From: Verrucomicrobiales bacterium
GTDB lineage: Bacteria > Verrucomicrobiota > Verrucomicrobiia > Verrucomicrobiales > DEV007
Reading direction: 5' to 3'
NCBI GenBank assembly: GCA_002726915.1
Contig: PBSY01000016.1
Coordinates: 1 to 50,150, forward strand
Length of the DNA stretch: 50,150 bases
The notes under the pieces were generated by a model. The model was not told where the DNA came from. It made no database searches and saw only the letters and a list, made by a program, of their open reading frames with translations. Position numbers and translations under genes: made by a program. Position 1 is the stretch's first letter, and every line of letters begins with the position of its first letter. Positions 11,139 through 17,097 of this stretch are shown piece by piece.

Positions 11139-11189
11139 TAGGAGGAAAGTTAACAGAATTCAACGGAGGTGAGATCTCCTTCCGAGTTA

Positions 11190-11217
11190 GGGCAGCCGAT
11201 GAAGGCTGCCCTTTTTT
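11190..11217 (+). terminator. Rho-independent terminator after the sulfatase
   Basis: A perfect 8-bp stem GGGCAGCC/GGCTGCCC with loop GATGAA is followed by six T. It ends the sulfatase transcript and isolates the downstream signalling operon. The rest of the 11139-11465 gap is AT-rich and probably contains the operon promoter; I see no convincing -35/-10 pair. Confidence 0.92.
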
Positions 11218-11407: not shown

Positions 11408-11436
11408 AATATTAAGCGATTTACTTGCTTAATATT
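11408..11436. promoter_or_regulatory. Perfect 10-bp dyad upstream of the signalling operon
   Basis: AATATTAAGC (11408-11417) and GCTTAATATT (11427-11436) are exact inverted repeats separated by 9 bp. The dyad centres about 44 bp before the ATG of the receiver-methyltransferase gene, inside AT-rich promoter-like DNA. The geometry suits a dimeric regulator's operator. A 5'-UTR hairpin is the alternative. No DNA-binding regulator is encoded in the operon itself. Confidence 0.55.
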
Positions 11437-11465: not shown

Positions 11466-13361
11466 ATGCGAAAAGTTTTCGAGCAGATGCGATTCATTAC
11501 CGACGATTTCAAAAATCAGGGAATGCGCGGCCTTTCGGTTGGGTCGGACTCGATTGTTGATGAGTTGGCTAACCTGACTGTTTTGGTAATTGACGACGAT
11601 CCGTCACTTGGACGTCTTATCGAACGGTCGATGGAAGACGATGCGAGGGTGCTTCAATGGTTTGATTTTCCGAAAGAGGGAGAGCTTGATCTTACAGGGG
11701 TTGACTTGGTGATGTTGGACTATGTCTTGCCAAGCCGAAATGGATTGGTGCGGCTTCAGGAAATCAGAAACGTTAGCGAGGATTTGCCGGTAATTTTTAT
11801 GACCGGATATGGCGATGGTAATATCGCTAGCAAGGCTATCGAACTTGGAGCGAGTGAGTATGTGGCGAAGCCTTTTGAGCCCGTTGTGTTGCGGCGGGTG
11901 GTAAACCGTCTTGTCAGGGCCAAAAGCGATACCGGACGATCAGAACCGCCGAAATTGCCAGGAGAGCAGAGGGCGAGAGTCTTTCAGGCTACTGACCAAA
12001 ACGGAGATTTTTTCGAAGCGCAGTTGGAGGCGTTTGAGGCGCGCTCTGCTGTTGTTCGAGTCGAAGGCGCAGGTCGCTTTGAGGTGGGCGACGTGCTCTC
12101 TGCAGCCAGTGTTCTTTTTGGTTCGTCAAAAATCGATTTCACGACGGGAAGAGTGGAGCAGGTAATTCCCGATGGCGATGAAGAGGTTTTAAAAGTCCAA
12201 CTAACTCGTGAATGGCTAGTGGTCGATCGTGACGAGAAAAAGCTCGAGAGTGTCTATTACTGCGTCCACTCAGAAAAAGGGGATCGTGACCGTGGAGAAC
12301 TTCCGGGTAATTTAAGGCTTGCGGCGATCGACCTTGCCGCCGTTTTTCGTGAGATTCATGATGACGTGACTGCGTTTGAAGTGTCGCTCGACCGTTACCC
12401 ACCCGCTGAAAGGGTTAAAGTCGAAGGGAAGTTCCTTAGTTATGCTAAGAAGACTCTATACCAGCGGCTGACCGAAGCGGTTATTCAATTTGAGGAGGCA
12501 TCTGAACTCGCGTGCTCAATGGGCTGCGAGGGAGCGTTTCAGGGCTTTTCCCGCAAACTGCTCTACCCCCACGTTCTTTCTTCGCCTTTTATGTCAAGAA
12601 TCGTAGAGCGACCTATCGGCGTGCCTGGGGATTTCGATATGCTTGGTCAGATTCTTGGGACACGGTTCCGTGGAGAGTCGCTTTTTGGCCGACTCATTAA
12701 TGAATGGATTTTGAGCAACCCTGCTACCGACGCTTATCGTCACCGCGTTCGATTGTTAGAAGATCACACGCGAGCTGTGGTGAAGGACTGTTCGTTCTCA
12801 GGTCGTAGAGCCAAAGTGATGAGTATGGCCAGTGGAGTTGCCTATGAAGTACAGCGCTATATGCAGAATCCAGAGCCAGAGTGCGAAGTCGAATTCACGC
12901 TCGTTGACTTCAGTGAGGACACCTTGGTTGAGGCGAGAAATCAATTCACAGGTCTCGGAGAGCTGCCGGAATCAGCATCGGTGAGTTTCGAACAAAGCTC
13001 CGTGATTGAATTGGCGAACAGTTCACGCAGCGGAGCCTCCACGGGAGGCGGTTGGGCTCCCGACGGAAAGTACGACGTCGTTTATTGTGCCGGGCTTTTT
13101 GATTACCTTTCCGACCGAATGGTGATCAGCGTTACCCGCTACCTTGACACTTTAGTCGCCGACGGTGGTGTATTACTAGTGAGTAATTATACGACGCAGA
13201 ATCCATTTGCTCACTTCATGGGGCTCGTTCTCGATTGGGAGCTGGTCTATCGAAGTGAAAGTCACTTCGACGGCCTGATGCGAAAGGCGCTCGGACAGGG
13301 CAATTATCAGCTCAAGACCGATAAAAACGGGGTTGAAGTCTACGGAATTGCCGGCCATTGA
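11466..13361 (+). CDS. Receiver-domain / PhcB-like SAM-dependent methyltransferase fusion
   Basis: A 631-aa cytoplasmic fusion. Residues 37-152 are a CheY-like receiver: acidic pocket Asp43-45, phospho-acceptor Asp85 (MLDYVLPSRNG), Thr113 and Lys135 (AKPFEP). Residues about 168-255 may be a PilZ-like barrel without its RxxxR or D/NxSxxG motif (weak). Residues about 290-631 match the PhcB-like methyltransferase family ('3-hydroxypalmitate methyl ester biosynthesis'): ERPIGVPGDFDML, RGESLFGRLINEWILSN, then a Rossmann methyltransferase with motif I VMSMASGVAYE (451-461), acidic Asp481 and DVVYCAGLFDYLSD. In Ralstonia, PhcB makes the quorum signal 3-OH-PAME/MAME. The next two genes resemble PhcS and PhcR. 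The product and the role of the receiver are inferred. There is no Shine-Dalgarno; Met20 is an alternative start. Confidence 0.78.
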   Translation: MRKVFEQMRFITDDFKNQGMRGLSVGSDSIVDELANLTVLVIDDDPSLGRLIERSMEDDARVLQWFDFPKEGELDLTGVDLVMLDYVLPSRNGLVRLQEIRNVSEDLPVIFMTGYGDGNIASKAIELGASEYVAKPFEPVVLRRVVNRLVRAKSDTGRSEPPKLPGEQRARVFQATDQNGDFFEAQLEAFEARSAVVRVEGAGRFEVGDVLSAASVLFGSSKIDFTTGRVEQVIPDGDEEVLKVQLTREWLVVDRDEKKLESVYYCVHSEKGDRDRGELPGNLRLAAIDLAAVFREIHDDVTAFEVSLDRYPPAERVKVEGKFLSYAKKTLYQRLTEAVIQFEEASELACSMGCEGAFQGFSRKLLYPHVLSSPFMSRIVERPIGVPGDFDMLGQILGTRFRGESLFGRLINEWILSNPATDAYRHRVRLLEDHTRAVVKDCSFSGRRAKVMSMASGVAYEVQRYMQNPEPECEVEFTLVDFSEDTLVEARNQFTGLGELPESASVSFEQSSVIELANSSRSGASTGGGWAPDGKYDVVYCAGLFDYLSDRMVISVTRYLDTLVADGGVLLVSNYTTQNPFAHFMGLVLDWELVYRSESHFDGLMRKALGQGNYQLKTDKNGVEVYGIAGH

Positions 13362-13371
13362 CCAAATTTTC

Positions 13372-13411
13372 TTATCTAATTTCCATAAAAATTAGATAAA
13401 CTGTATTTTTT
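13372..13411 (+). promoter_or_regulatory. Perfect 11-bp intercistronic hairpin followed by T-run
   Basis: TTATCTAATTT (13372-13382) and AAATTAGATAA (13389-13399) are exact complements around the loop CCATAA, with TTTTTT at 13406-13411. It sits between the receiver-methyltransferase and kinase genes, 20 bp before the kinase ATG. It could act as a weak terminator or attenuator setting the synthase:kinase ratio, a 3'-end stabiliser, or an operator. The AT-rich stem argues against strong termination. Confidence 0.55.
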
Positions 13412-13431
13412 GCGGTATCCTTCTCAAGTAG

Positions 13432-14922
13432 ATGCCACAAGAATCAATCATTGATTATCGTCCGTTTCAGTCGGAAGGCGAAGGTTTAGGCCTTTCCGCC
13501 TACGCTAAGAAGCGTCTCGCTGCCGAGAATAGGAGGAAGGTCATGAATTCGGTCCGTGCCCTGTCCTACATGGCTGCAATTGTGATTCCACTTTTTGCGG
13601 TTCTTGACTATTTTATGTATCAGGAACTCTTCGTTGATTTCCTTATTCTCCGTTTTATCTGCGTCGGATTCGTTCTGGGGGCGCTTTTCATGTGTGCTAG
13701 AACCCGTTTTGGCAAACGCTACTACCGACTGTTCACGGTGGTTATCCCTTTAATCCCAGCTTTTTTCATTGCCTTGATGATTTTCCTCTCGGCTGACGCT
13801 CAGACTACCTATTACGTTGGTATGTTGCTGTGTCTCGTTGTGATCGGATTCGTTTCTCACTGGACGTGTACTGAAGCTTTAATCGCTTCCGCGCTCGTTA
13901 TCCTGTTCTACTTCATAGCTATCTTCCCCGCGGTATTCAGTGGCGTTGATGCGCGAGGCAGTATCTACCTCCTGAGTAATTGTATTTTTGCAGTTGCCTA
14001 CGGGGGAGTGATTACGATCGGAACTTTCCTTCATCAGAAGATACGAATGAACGAGTTCGTTTCTCGGGAGAACGTCAGGAAACAGCAGGCGAAACTAGAG
14101 AATAAAAATAGCGAACTGGCACGCACTATGGGGGAGCTGCGTGAGACGGAGCATTTATTGATTCAATCAGAAAAAATGGCATCGCTCGGACAACTTAGTG
14201 CCGGGGTGATTCATGAGATTGGTAATCCGCTGAACTACTCAAATCAGGCTCTTTTCTTGCTTCGCAAACTCCTGCGCAGCGAAAATCAGAACACCAGAGT
14301 AGTTGAGGCAATTGATGATATTCAGGACAGCATGGATCGTATGAAGGAGATCGTTAGGGAATTGCGTGAATTTTCCCACAAGACTGGTGAAACGAAGGGT
14401 GATCATCTCATTAGCGATTCGGTTCAAATTGCACTGAGAATGCTTGGTAAAGAAATAGAATCCTCTCAGACGACGGTAACGACTGAGCTGGATAACGAAA
14501 TTCGAATCGAGGGATTAAAGAATCCGATCACGCAGGTTCTGATCAATCTGATTCACAATTCGATTCAGGCCATGGAATGCGACGATAGTGAAAACCCTAA
14601 TCGCGTCGAGCTCAAGGCGACCTCTGATGAAAGTAACGCACTTATCACCGTGCGAGATAACGGTCCGGGGATTGCGAGTGAAAATCTTAGCCGAATTTTC
14701 GATCCGTTCTATACCACCAAGGAGGCCGGTGAGGGGACGGGACTTGGGTTGAGTATCTGCTATCGAATCGTGGAATCCCACGGAGGCAAGATTTTAGTCG
14801 ATTCTCAAGTGGGTCAATATACTGAGTTCTCTATTTTCCTCCCGCTCGCGCAAACTCCGTCGCGGGCAGCTTTTCATCATTCCAAACCTATCCTCAGCGA
14901 ATATGGACAAAAAGTTTACTGA
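13432..14922 (+). CDS. Six-TM sensor histidine kinase, PhcS-like
   Basis: Inner-membrane sensor kinase of 496 aa. Six hydrophobic segments lie at about 43-62, 66-88, 99-120, 126-144, 147-170 and 178-200 with short loops, so the sensor is membrane-embedded. This is the layout of PhcS/LqsS/CqsS-type autoinducer kinases. A coiled coil (about 210-250) leads to the H-box GVIHEIGNPLNY with phospho-acceptor His261. The ATPase domain is intact: N-box LINLIHNSIQAM, G1 RDNGPGIA, F-box IFDPFYTTK, G2 GTGLGLS. It should autophosphorylate and transfer to a receiver domain; the flanking genes encode two. The signal is probably a hydrophobic molecule, inferred from topology and neighbour. Its last 20 bp overlap the next gene, implying translational coupling. 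Confidence 0.85.
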   Translation: MPQESIIDYRPFQSEGEGLGLSAYAKKRLAAENRRKVMNSVRALSYMAAIVIPLFAVLDYFMYQELFVDFLILRFICVGFVLGALFMCARTRFGKRYYRLFTVVIPLIPAFFIALMIFLSADAQTTYYVGMLLCLVVIGFVSHWTCTEALIASALVILFYFIAIFPAVFSGVDARGSIYLLSNCIFAVAYGGVITIGTFLHQKIRMNEFVSRENVRKQQAKLENKNSELARTMGELRETEHLLIQSEKMASLGQLSAGVIHEIGNPLNYSNQALFLLRKLLRSENQNTRVVEAIDDIQDSMDRMKEIVRELREFSHKTGETKGDHLISDSVQIALRMLGKEIESSQTTVTTELDNEIRIEGLKNPITQVLINLIHNSIQAMECDDSENPNRVELKATSDESNALITVRDNGPGIASENLSRIFDPFYTTKEAGEGTGLGLSICYRIVESHGGKILVDSQVGQYTEFSIFLPLAQTPSRAAFHHSKPILSEYGQKVY

Positions 14923-16135
14923 TTTTGGGATTCTCTACGTCGATGACGAAGAGAAATCCCTGAAGTATTTCGAAGCGATCTTCGAAGATGTGGCACCGAT
15001 TTACACCGCAACATCACCGGAAATAGGTTACCGGATATTCAAGGAGAACCACGAGAACATCGGATTGGTTTTGAGTGACAACAAGATGCCTAACGAGTCT
15101 GGGCTCAGTTTTCTTCAGCGCGTTCGTGAGGTGAATCCAAAACCACTGCGTTTTCTCGTCACCGCCTACGCTGAGCTTGATGTGGCAGTTGAAGCCCTGA
15201 ACAGCGGCCTTCTCTATTCATATTTGTCCAAGCCTTGGGATCCCAATGATCTTGAGCATCGAATGGTCAAAGCGATGAAGCATTTCGCCCTTTCGCGAGA
15301 GAGGGATCAGCTCATCTGCGAAAAGGCGGAAGTGTTCGATCAGTTGGTGATGGCTGACAAGGCTTCTAGCATAGGTATCCTTTCCGCCGGATTGAACCAC
15401 CACCTAAGAAATGCACTCACGGTGATGCGAACCTTCTACGATATGCTTCCCTACCAAATGGAGGAGGAGCTTGGGCGGGAACCCAAGGATTCTTCTTTCT
15501 GGTGCGACTACTACGGAGAAGTGGGGAGTCAGATCAAACGAATGACATCGATGCTCACCAACCTTTCTGAAGGAGCTAGAGCCAGTGTGTTAAAAGTTGA
15601 AGACGAGATTGATCTGCTTGAGGCGTTCAAAAAGGCGTCCGAGCTAACGCTGGGTAAAGATCTAGGAATCGAAGTCGACTTCCAAGTCAATGGTGTGATT
15701 CCCAGTATCGCAGGGGACGCTCAAAACATAAGTCAGATGGCGCGTCTGCTCTTTCAGGAATCTAAGTCTGCGGTCGGAAGCGAGGGGTCCATTGAAGTTC
15801 GCTTATCCAGTGGGTCCAGTGGTAATGTTCAGATCGTGATCGTTGACAGTGGCGATGCGATTGCTGAGGAAGATCTCAAGCACTTGTTTGATCCATTTTT
15901 CGTTCGTAACGAACGCCCTGAAGACCTTGGTACGAATCTTATGGCATGCTATCTCACGGTGTATCACCACGGTGGAACGATCAAAGCAAGACGCACTCGT
16001 GATGGTCGTAATGCAATCGAGATATCGCTACCGGTGAAGCCTCTTAGCGAGGAGCAGGCGCAACGTTCGCGGCGGGTATTGGACCAGTTTTCGGAGTTTG
16101 AAGTCACCAGCGGAAACATGGGATTGCCGGCCTAA
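14903..16135 (+). CDS. Receiver domain plus degenerate histidine-kinase module, PhcR-like
   Basis: Cytoplasmic 410-aa protein. Residues 5-125 are a receiver domain with Asp14/Asp15, phospho-acceptor Asp59 (LSDNKMPNESG), Thr87 and Lys110 (SKPWDP). Residues 140-395 resemble a histidine kinase, but key positions deviate. The H-box reads LNHHLRNAL (His166 followed by His instead of Glu). The N-box position reads LLFQESKSA without the Asn. G1 reads DSGDAI (second Gly lost), and G2 reads LGTNLMACY. It is therefore more likely a phospho-transfer or scaffold protein than an active kinase. A receiver with a C-terminal kinase module is the unusual layout of Ralstonia PhcR, which also follows phcS. There is no DNA-binding domain. 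Confidence 0.78.
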   Translation: MDKKFTDFGILYVDDEEKSLKYFEAIFEDVAPIYTATSPEIGYRIFKENHENIGLVLSDNKMPNESGLSFLQRVREVNPKPLRFLVTAYAELDVAVEALNSGLLYSYLSKPWDPNDLEHRMVKAMKHFALSRERDQLICEKAEVFDQLVMADKASSIGILSAGLNHHLRNALTVMRTFYDMLPYQMEEELGREPKDSSFWCDYYGEVGSQIKRMTSMLTNLSEGARASVLKVEDEIDLLEAFKKASELTLGKDLGIEVDFQVNGVIPSIAGDAQNISQMARLLFQESKSAVGSEGSIEVRLSSGSSGNVQIVIVDSGDAIAEEDLKHLFDPFFVRNERPEDLGTNLMACYLTVYHHGGTIKARRTRDGRNAIEISLPVKPLSEEQAQRSRRVLDQFSEFEVTSGNMGLPA

Positions 16136-16209: not shown

Positions 16210-17097
16210 CTAGGAACACCCATTCCCGTTTTTGATCGTCTCGAAGAGGTCGAGGGCTTCGGCGGGCTTGAGACCGTCGTGAACAACTCCAGCGACCGCC
16301 TTAATCATAGCGAGAGGGGCGGCAGACTGAAAAACGTTTCGTCCCATATCAACACCAGCAGCACCGCACTGGATCGCGTTGTAGGCAAGCTCGAGAGCTT
16401 CGAGTTCAGGAAGTTTTTTACCGCCGGCGATGACCACTGGAACCGGAGTGCAGGCTACGACGTTCTCGAAACCTTCGGTGTAGTAGGTCTTTACAATACT
16501 GGCTCCGTTTTCGGCGCAGACACGGGAGGCAAGGCTGAAATAACGGGCATCACGAGCCATATCTTTTCCGACAGCAGTCACGCCCATGACGGGGATACTG
16601 TATTTGTTGCCAATATCAACCAGTCGGCTGATGTTAGCGATTGTTGATGCCTCGGTGGCCGCATCACCTACGGCGATCATTGCCGCCATTGCGGAAGCGT
16701 TCATTGAGATGGCCTCAGCCTCATCGAGCAATACGTTATGATTCATCTCTGTAAGAATCGTAGTGCCCGTGTCAGTGCGGAGACAGACCGGCTTGGTGTT
16801 GTCTGCGGGAATGCACGAACGGATCATTCCGCGTGTGCCCATGAGGCAGTCGGCGTGTTCTGCGAGGGGAGCGATGCTGAGGTCAATTCGCTCGAGACCT
16901 GAAGTTGGTCCCATAAGAAAGCCGTGGTCAAAGGCCAGCATTACGGTGCGACCCGATTTACGATTAAAGATCCGCGACATGCGGTTCTTGATGCCCCAGT
17001 CAGTGCTATTGATGCCCTTGAGGTAAAAGGAATCGGTATCAGCTGGTGTATTGAGGCCGAAGTTGTCTCCGTCTCTGATGTCGTCTAGGTCTGCCAT
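16210..17097 (-). CDS. lsrF: LsrF-like class I aldolase/thiolase
   Basis: A 295-aa TIM-barrel enzyme of the DhnA/FbaB class I aldolase family, strikingly similar along its whole length to Escherichia coli LsrF as I remember it. Shared stretches include MADLDDI at the start, SGLERIDLSIAPL, GKDMARDARYFSLA, VVIAGGKKLPE and GVDMGRN. The Schiff-base lysine falls at Lys203 (IVKTYY), the same number as in LsrF. In enterics LsrF transfers an acetyl group from phosphorylated autoinducer-2 breakdown product to CoA. No lsrK, lsrG, lsrR or transporter genes are nearby, so an AI-2 role here is uncertain; another sugar-phosphate aldol reaction is possible. It converges on the Phc-like operon. No Shine-Dalgarno is visible. 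Confidence 0.78.
   Translation of the reverse strand: MADLDDIRDGDNFGLNTPADTDSFYLKGINSTDWGIKNRMSRIFNRKSGRTVMLAFDHGFLMGPTSGLERIDLSIAPLAEHADCLMGTRGMIRSCIPADNTKPVCLRTDTGTTILTEMNHNVLLDEAEAISMNASAMAAMIAVGDAATEASTIANISRLVDIGNKYSIPVMGVTAVGKDMARDARYFSLASRVCAENGASIVKTYYTEGFENVVACTPVPVVIAGGKKLPELEALELAYNAIQCGAAGVDMGRNVFQSAAPLAMIKAVAGVVHDGLKPAEALDLFETIKNGNGCS

What the first reader, a model, noticed from the sequence alone, without database searches (positions are those of the whole stretch)
11466..16135. Phc-like fatty-acid-ester quorum-sensing operon in a verrucomicrobial genome
Seen: three same-strand genes encode a PhcB-like methyltransferase, a six-TM histidine kinase and a receiver-plus-kinase protein, the last two overlapping by 20 bp. 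Known: Ralstonia phcBSR has this order and these domain types and makes and senses 3-hydroxy fatty acid methyl esters. Inference: this is a complete synthase-sensor-relay module in a phylum where I know of no described example.
Basis: partly seen in the sequence, partly recalled or inferred. Interest (0 to 1): 0.88.

Follow-up and report, generated by a model that had tools for sequence, protein, structure and literature searches.

The report
Verrucomicrobial Phc-type operon, receiver-fused synthase
A three-gene cluster in an uncultured verrucomicrobial bacterium is a relative of the fatty-acid-ester signalling system known from Ralstonia, and its predicted signal-making enzyme carries its own phosphorylation switch, which suggests that the cell may tune signal production directly.

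Summary
The three genes are real (11466-13361, 13432-14922, 14903-16135; the last two overlap by 20 bp). They are orthologues of the Burkholderiaceae phc operon: reciprocal best hits hold for the synthase, for the sensor's membrane domain and for the third gene's receiver. The kinase falls in a PhcS group (SH-aLRT 99, nine other kinases outside). Of 80 named synthase loci, mostly verrucomicrobial, 64 carry the kinase and receiver genes alongside.

Gene 1 is a whole PhcB with an added N-terminal receiver domain whose phosphorylation residues are intact. Gene 3 is not PhcR: its receiver groups with PhcQ and its kinase region lacks the ATP-binding Asn. PhcR is absent from the operon and no clear PhcA orthologue was found.

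Best reading: a PhcB-PhcS-PhcQ variant of quorum sensing in which the sensor kinase may feed back on the synthase through the fused receiver. Orthology is well supported; chemistry, signalling role and feedback are inferred. The open-literature searches listed no description of it. New variant of a known kind.

The parts
11466..13361 (+). gene 1: PhcB orthologue with an N-terminal receiver domain (631 aa)
11580..11903 (+). receiver domain of gene 1 (residues 39-146); D44, D85, T113, K135 present
   Evidence: residues kept in 14 of 14 receiver-bearing rows, window included
11976..12227 (+). beta-strand domain of gene 1 (residues about 171-254), homologous to PhcB's own N-terminal domain
   Evidence: profile match, probability 99.0, E 4.6e-18; strands in the model
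12366..13358 (+). SAM-dependent methyltransferase part of gene 1 (residues 301-631)
13432..14922 (+). gene 2: PhcS orthologue, membrane sensor histidine kinase (496 aa), phospho-acceptor H261
13549..14019 (+). membrane sensor part of gene 2 (hydrophobic segments between residues 40 and 196)
   Evidence: hydropathy; homology to PhcS
14143..14853 (+). kinase core of gene 2 (residues 238-474)
14903..16135 (+). gene 3: PhcQ-type receiver joined to a degenerate kinase region (410 aa)
14930..15262 (+). receiver domain of gene 3 (residues 10-120; D59)
15329..16042 (+). probable pseudokinase region of gene 3 (residues 143-380): H166 kept, N-box Asn replaced (E286)
11189..11212 (+). terminator-like hairpin with T-run between the upstream sulfatase gene and the operon
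   Evidence: consensus scan; sequence
11408..11436 (.). inverted repeat in the leader of gene 1 (10-nt perfect arms, 9-nt spacer), possible operator
   Evidence: function not tested

Best explanation
This is a Phc-type cell-to-cell signalling module of the form PhcB-PhcS-PhcQ. Shown by sequence: gene 1 is an orthologue of the signal synthase PhcB with an added, residue-complete receiver domain; gene 2 is an orthologue of the sensor kinase PhcS; gene 3 carries a PhcQ-type receiver on a degenerate kinase. Inferred: gene 1 uses SAM to make a methyl ester of a (3-hydroxy) fatty acid; the ester builds up with cell density; it changes the phosphorylation of H261 in gene 2 through the membrane domain; the phosphoryl group passes to D85 of the synthase itself and to D59 of gene 3. 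Phosphorylation of the synthase's receiver adjusts signal production (direct feedback), and gene 3 passes the state on to a regulator that is unknown and probably not PhcA.
For: Burkholderiaceae PhcB finds one place in the whole window genome, gene 1 (E 1.6e-41), and gene 1's methyltransferase finds one place, PhcB, in each of 4 Burkholderiaceae genomes. PhcS's membrane region finds only gene 2 (E 4.8e-11); the reverse search is best at PhcS in 4 of 4. PhcQ's best place is gene 3 (E 3.6e-28, next 2.9e-10), reverse best at PhcQ in 4 of 4. PhcS group in the kinase tree: 98, 99 with nine outside kinases. Gene 1's middle region is PhcB's N-terminal domain. Synteny: 64 of 80 named loci. Receiver residues intact in 14 of 14 rows. 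[quoted passage not shown] PhcS hands phosphate to receivers (PMC11960443, passages).
Against: Product and ligand are unknown; even in Cupriavidus metallidurans 3-OH PAME could not be purified and a structural variant is suspected (PMC2864759, passages). Identity to PhcB is only about 31-35%, to the PhcS membrane region 25-29%. No PhcR in the operon and no clear PhcA orthologue. Receiver fusion is the minority form: 64 of 80 named loci show none (some are truncated). Other work places PhcQ downstream, acting through PhcA rather than on synthesis (PMC8578825, passages; PMC13320629, abstract start in a listing). Two receiver-fused synthases of one genome lack an adjacent kinase, as does L036.
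Confidence: 0.6

Rival explanations
1. Not quorum sensing but a private fatty-acid or membrane sensor: the methyltransferase caps free or acyl-carrier-bound fatty acids and the membrane kinase monitors the pool inside the same cell, with no extracellular signal.
For: No export or uptake gene lies in the operon. Some family members sit beside lipid genes: a cyclopropane-fatty-acyl-phospholipid synthase gene upstream in Paraburkholderia graminis and a fatty acid desaturase gene near a distant relative in Deinococcus.
Against: The orthologous operon is an established quorum-sensing system in Ralstonia (PMC8578825, PMC11960443, passages), and synthase plus sensor are kept together in most of the loci seen. 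The esters are described as volatile or diffusible, so no exporter is needed (PMC2842291, PMC2864759, passages).
Confidence: 0.2
2. The receiver on gene 1 does not control catalysis; it docks the synthase to the sensor kinase at the membrane, or acts as a phosphate sink that tunes the signal to gene 3.
For: The model shows a low-confidence, probably flexible linker between receiver and synthase (residues 155-168). Most named synthases lack the receiver (64 of 80 loci), so the enzyme does not need it. PhcR and PhcQ have been discussed in terms of relays or sinks (PMC8578825, passages).
Against: The phosphorylation residues are kept in 14 of 14 rows although most rows are only 28-42% identical to the window protein, which argues against a pure anchor; a sink would need them too, so this does not exclude it.
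Confidence: 0.3
3. A receiver-regulated methyltransferase of another substrate (not a fatty acid) that has kept the PhcS-type kinase as its controller.
For: Low identity to PhcB (31-35%), and wider relatives without a sensor kinase gene exist in Rhizobium and Deinococcus. The best fold match of the whole region, 3ocj, is an unassigned protein.
Against: In the methyltransferase tree those kinase-less relatives are long branches away from the operon-bearing group that holds PhcB; both PhcB domains are present and the sensor domain is PhcS-type.
Confidence: 0.15

Closest known systems
phcBSRQ-phcA quorum sensing of Ralstonia and Cupriavidus
   Same: Orthologous synthase (both domains), orthologous membrane sensor kinase, orthologous PhcQ-type receiver, same gene order.
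   Different: Receiver fused to the synthase; no PhcR gene; gene 3 has a degenerate kinase region where PhcQ has an unrelated-looking C-terminus; no clear PhcA orthologue.
Hybrid form of the same operon in other Verrucomicrobia (e.g. Prosthecobacter, Pelagicoccus, Pedosphaera loci)
   Same: Synthase, PhcS-type sensor and gene 3-type receiver in the same order.
   Different: Sensor is usually a hybrid of about 900 aa with an inserted kinase and receiver (47 of 75 loci with a sensor have one over 700 aa) and the synthase has no receiver. Verrucomicrobium sp. BvORR106 (L105) and L082 have both the hybrid sensor and a receiver-fused synthase.
Lqs (Legionella) and Cqs (Vibrio) hydroxyketone systems
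   Same: General plan of a membrane kinase beside a small-molecule synthase (recalled).
   Different: LqsA and CqsA are PLP-dependent enzymes (recalled); gene 1 is a SAM methyltransferase. The membrane domains were not compared, as no reference sequence was fetched.

Membership tests
PhcB synthase family | Reciprocal best hit with PhcB in whole genomes | tested here: met
   (single hit each way; 4 of 4 genomes)
PhcB synthase family | Both PhcB domains, N-terminal and methyltransferase | tested here: met
PhcB synthase family | Makes a 3-hydroxy fatty acid methyl ester | not testable with these tools
   needs LC-MS
PhcS sensor family | PhcS-type membrane domain, and kinase in the PhcS group | tested here: met
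   His aligned with that of PhcS
PhcS sensor family | Senses a fatty-acid methyl ester | not testable with these tools
   needs a binding or phosphorylation assay
PhcQ (gene 3) | PhcQ-type receiver and linker | tested here: met
PhcQ (gene 3) | PhcQ-type C-terminal region | tested here: not met
   profile probability 0.9; the region is like a histidine kinase instead, so gene 3 is called PhcQ-type, not PhcQ
PhcR (gene 3) | Receiver in the PhcR group, and a kinase with the N-box Asn | tested here: not met
Complete phcBSRQ-phcA system | phcR between phcS and phcQ | tested here: not met
   genes 2 and 3 overlap by 20 bp. One Burkholderiaceae locus (L198) also lacks it.
Complete phcBSRQ-phcA system | PhcA (LysR-type) orthologue in the genome | tested here: inconclusive
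   three LysR proteins in an assembly 92% complete; best match to the Cupriavidus-group PhcA candidate 22.7% over 194 aa
Lqs/Cqs hydroxyketone systems | PLP-dependent (LqsA/CqsA-type) synthase | tested here: not met
   gene 1 shows receiver and methyltransferase domains only; feature recalled
Lqs/Cqs hydroxyketone systems | LqsS/CqsS-type membrane sensor domain | not tested
   no LqsS or CqsS reference sequence was fetched

The most novel reading that the evidence does not exclude
A quorum-sensing signal synthase that is itself a response regulator: the module's own sensor kinase phosphorylates the synthase, so that signal production is switched directly and without transcription, in a Phc-type system that is widespread in Verrucomicrobia.
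Probability: 0.4. Interest if true: 0.82.

Novelty: new variant of a known kind. Interest (0 to 1): 0.62.

Why it matters
Fatty-acid-ester quorum sensing is known to me only from Burkholderiaceae (recalled). The data here put an orthologous operon in many Verrucomicrobia, with single loci whose titles name a deltaproteobacterium (L098), a Bryobacteraceae member (L099), an Omnitrophota member (L106) and FCPU426 (L115). The literature searches listed no description of it there. If true, it gives a phylum whose cell-to-cell communication is little known a concrete, testable system. The part of the operon shared between the phyla is PhcB-PhcS-PhcQ, which fits the report that deleting phcQ matters more than deleting phcR (PMC8578825, abstract and passages). 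The receiver on the synthase makes the reported effect of PhcQ on signal production (PMC6989110) testable as direct phosphorylation control.

Tried and rejected

Rows dropped before counts: receiver tree 89 of the 173 receivers extracted; kinase trees 110 of 211 domains and 73 rows; methyltransferase tree 65 of 104. Dropped were copies of one locus fetched twice, a thinning of the verrucomicrobial loci, and some near-identical Burkholderiaceae rows. The trees were quick searches with SH-aLRT support only. Literature searches are of open-licence papers; two searches listed 15 of 62 and 10 of 58 papers.
Full report
OBSERVATION. The window carries three + strand genes at 11466-13361 (631 aa), 13432-14922 (496 aa) and 14903-16135 (410 aa), the last two overlapping by 20 bp. 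Pfam finds a receiver domain at the start of gene 1 (E 7.4e-18) before a methyltransferase domain that scores under its family's cut-off; HisKA and HATPase_c in gene 2; and a receiver with weaker kinase domains in gene 3. The genome (G000, 3.53 Mb, 102 contigs, 92% complete) holds a single match to the methyltransferase part. The nearest named relative is a metagenome-assembled Akkermansiaceae bacterium (UBA1506), 89% identical in the methyltransferase region. A terminator-like hairpin follows the upstream sulfatase gene, so the operon may have its own promoter between 11213 and 11465; this is a consensus match only.

WHAT THE REFERENCES ARE. PhcB-like loci were first met in Paraburkholderia (plasmid record; named loci L129 and L130) and Hydrogenophaga (L100). 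A search of Burkholderiaceae with the L129 protein found 54 of 249 genomes with a match; apart from the query's own genome, identities were 56-93%. Seven of these loci were read. Five (L194, L195, L196, L197, L200) show synthase (463-470 aa), membrane kinase, receiver-kinase and receiver protein (335-340 aa) in order; L199 has the same order with a more diverged receiver-kinase; L198 lacks the receiver-kinase. This is the published phcBSRQ order, and the sizes are close to the published PhcB 464-468, PhcR 368-374 and PhcQ 336-337 aa (PMC8578825, passages), apart from longer mechanical starts such as 449 aa in L197. One genome (G697) is of the Cupriavidus group by DNA; Cupriavidus metallidurans, three other Cupriavidus species and Ralstonia pickettii are reported to have all five phc genes (PMC2864759, passages). 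No named Ralstonia record was compared.

ORTHOLOGY. Synthase: PhcB of L194 finds one place in the window's genome (E 1.6e-41), and the window's methyltransferase finds one place, PhcB, in each of four Burkholderiaceae genomes (E 2e-44 to 5e-36). Sensor: the PhcS membrane region finds one place, gene 2 (E 4.8e-11); the reverse search is best at PhcS in 4 of 4 genomes, with a weaker second hit in one of them (E 8.5e-5). Third gene: PhcQ's best place is gene 3 (E 3.6e-28, next 2.9e-10), and gene 3's receiver plus linker is best at PhcQ in 4 of 4 genomes (E 5e-29 to 1e-26), the PhcR-position receivers following at 1e-17 to 2e-13 in three of them.

TREES. Kinase domains: the window kinase, its genus relatives, PhcS, and the last kinase of the hybrid verrucomicrobial sensors form one side of a branch (SH-aLRT 98; 99, where nine neighbouring kinases of other kinds were added and all fell outside). 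PhcR, the gene 3 kinase regions and the first kinase of the hybrids lie outside. Receivers: gene 3 relatives and PhcQ together (95), with PhcR outside; the alignment is short (133 columns), so this should be read with care. Methyltransferases: the 16 receiver-fused synthases of the genus form one group (99); Burkholderiaceae PhcB with one sequence titled Deltaproteobacteria form another (97); the Rhizobium, Deinococcus and Pseudanabaena relatives and two from the window's family are long branches outside.

THE UNUSUAL PARTS. (1) Gene 1 holds both PhcB domains with a receiver added in front. Its middle region matches the N-terminal domain of Burkholderiaceae PhcB at profile probability 99.0. 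The acidic pocket, phospho-acceptor, Thr and Lys (D44, D85, T113, K135) are kept in 14 of 14 receiver-bearing rows, the window included. The predicted structure (mean pLDDT 80.6, pTM 0.65) shows receiver, beta domain, helices and a methyltransferase fold, with a low-confidence linker at 155-168. Receiver-fused synthases occur in 16 of 80 named loci: 14 in the window's genus, plus Verrucomicrobium sp. BvORR106 (L105) and L082; a further distant case (L050) has no kinase gene next to it. (2) Gene 3's kinase region is degenerate: the N-box Asn is absent in 24 of 24 gene 3 rows (Glu or Asp in 22) but present in 3 of 3 PhcR; the phospho-acceptor His is kept in 21 of 24. It is a PhcQ-type receiver on a probable pseudokinase. 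Against a simple PhcQ label: its C-terminal region is like PhcR's by profile (98.9) and unlike PhcQ's (0.9). (3) Of 75 named loci with a sensor, 47 have one over 700 aa, a hybrid with an inserted kinase and receiver where read; the window's genus and some others have the simple form, as in Burkholderiaceae.

DISTRIBUTION. Family: 19 of 74 genomes, of which 15 of 33 in the same genus. Phylum, drawn evenly: 29 of 387, 22 of them strong (E 1.7e-76 or better). Operon: 12 of 15 genus loci and 64 of 80 named loci have kinase and receiver genes following (the sets overlap). Of the 16 misses, ten run into the end of the stretch held; six do not (L062, L065, L066, L116, L120, L132). Within the genus a sulfatase gene before and an LsrF-type aldolase gene after are each found in 7 of 15 loci, some of which are short contigs.

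MECHANISM. Shown: homology, gene order, intact phosphorylation residues, degenerate kinase. Known for orthologues: PhcB makes a methyl 3-hydroxy fatty acid; PhcS senses it, is phosphorylated on a His and is held to hand on to receivers (PMC11960443 and PMC8578825, passages). [quoted passage not shown] other work has PhcQ acting mainly through PhcA (PMC8578825; PMC13320629, abstract start in the listing). Inferred: in the window's genus the receiver on the synthase makes such control direct. The output is unknown. Pfam shows no DNA-binding domain in the three proteins, and of the three LysR proteins found in the genome the best match to the Cupriavidus-group PhcA candidate is 22.7% over 194 aa. 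That candidate is the LysR gene next to fur, as reported for C. metallidurans (PMC2864759).

LITERATURE. Searches for PhcB or PhcS with Verrucomicrobia, for 3-OH PAME and kinases with Verrucomicrobia, for phcBSRQ homologues across phyla, for fatty-acid methyl esters across phyla, and for autoinducer synthases with receiver domains listed no description of this system (titles and abstract starts only). Passages of one metagenome paper were read (PMC8792965): it lists PhcSRQ among two-component systems without tying it to Verrucomicrobia. The library holds open-licence papers only.

VERDICT. It is a new variant of a known kind. Whether it makes and senses an ester, and whether the synthase is controlled by phosphorylation, are open and directly testable.

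Noticed in passing
window 16210-17097 (-): The convergent downstream gene passes the NCBIfam cut-off for 3-hydroxy-5-phosphonooxypentane-2,4-dione thiolase (LsrF, an autoinducer-2 processing enzyme; 423.8 against 297 bits) and is found at 89-99% identity beside the operon in 7 of 15 genus loci. Whether the two are linked in function is unknown.
   Followed up: partly
window 13372-13399: Perfect inverted repeat (11-nt arms, 6-nt spacer) between genes 1 and 2, also in the close relative L054 (12-nt arms) and largely lost in L055.
   Followed up: partly
L046 and L047 (genome G018), L036: Receiver-fused synthases without a kinase gene next to them: one genome has two copies, one followed only by the gene 3 homologue. 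They may be served by a kinase elsewhere; the rest of these genomes was not searched for it.
   Followed up: partly
L068-L133: In most of these verrucomicrobial operons the sensor carries an extra kinase and receiver inserted between the membrane domain and the PhcS-type kinase; the inserted kinases and receivers each form one group.
   Followed up: partly
L098, L099, L106, L115: The operon, or its start before the contig ends, in contigs titled Deltaproteobacteria, Bryobacteraceae, Omnitrophota and FCPU426. Binning errors in these metagenome assemblies were not excluded.
   Followed up: no
L033 and L032: Distant methyltransferase relatives without an adjacent sensor kinase gene in Rhizobium etli (beside an EAL-domain gene) and Deinococcus (a fatty acid desaturase gene nearby), role unknown.
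   Followed up: no
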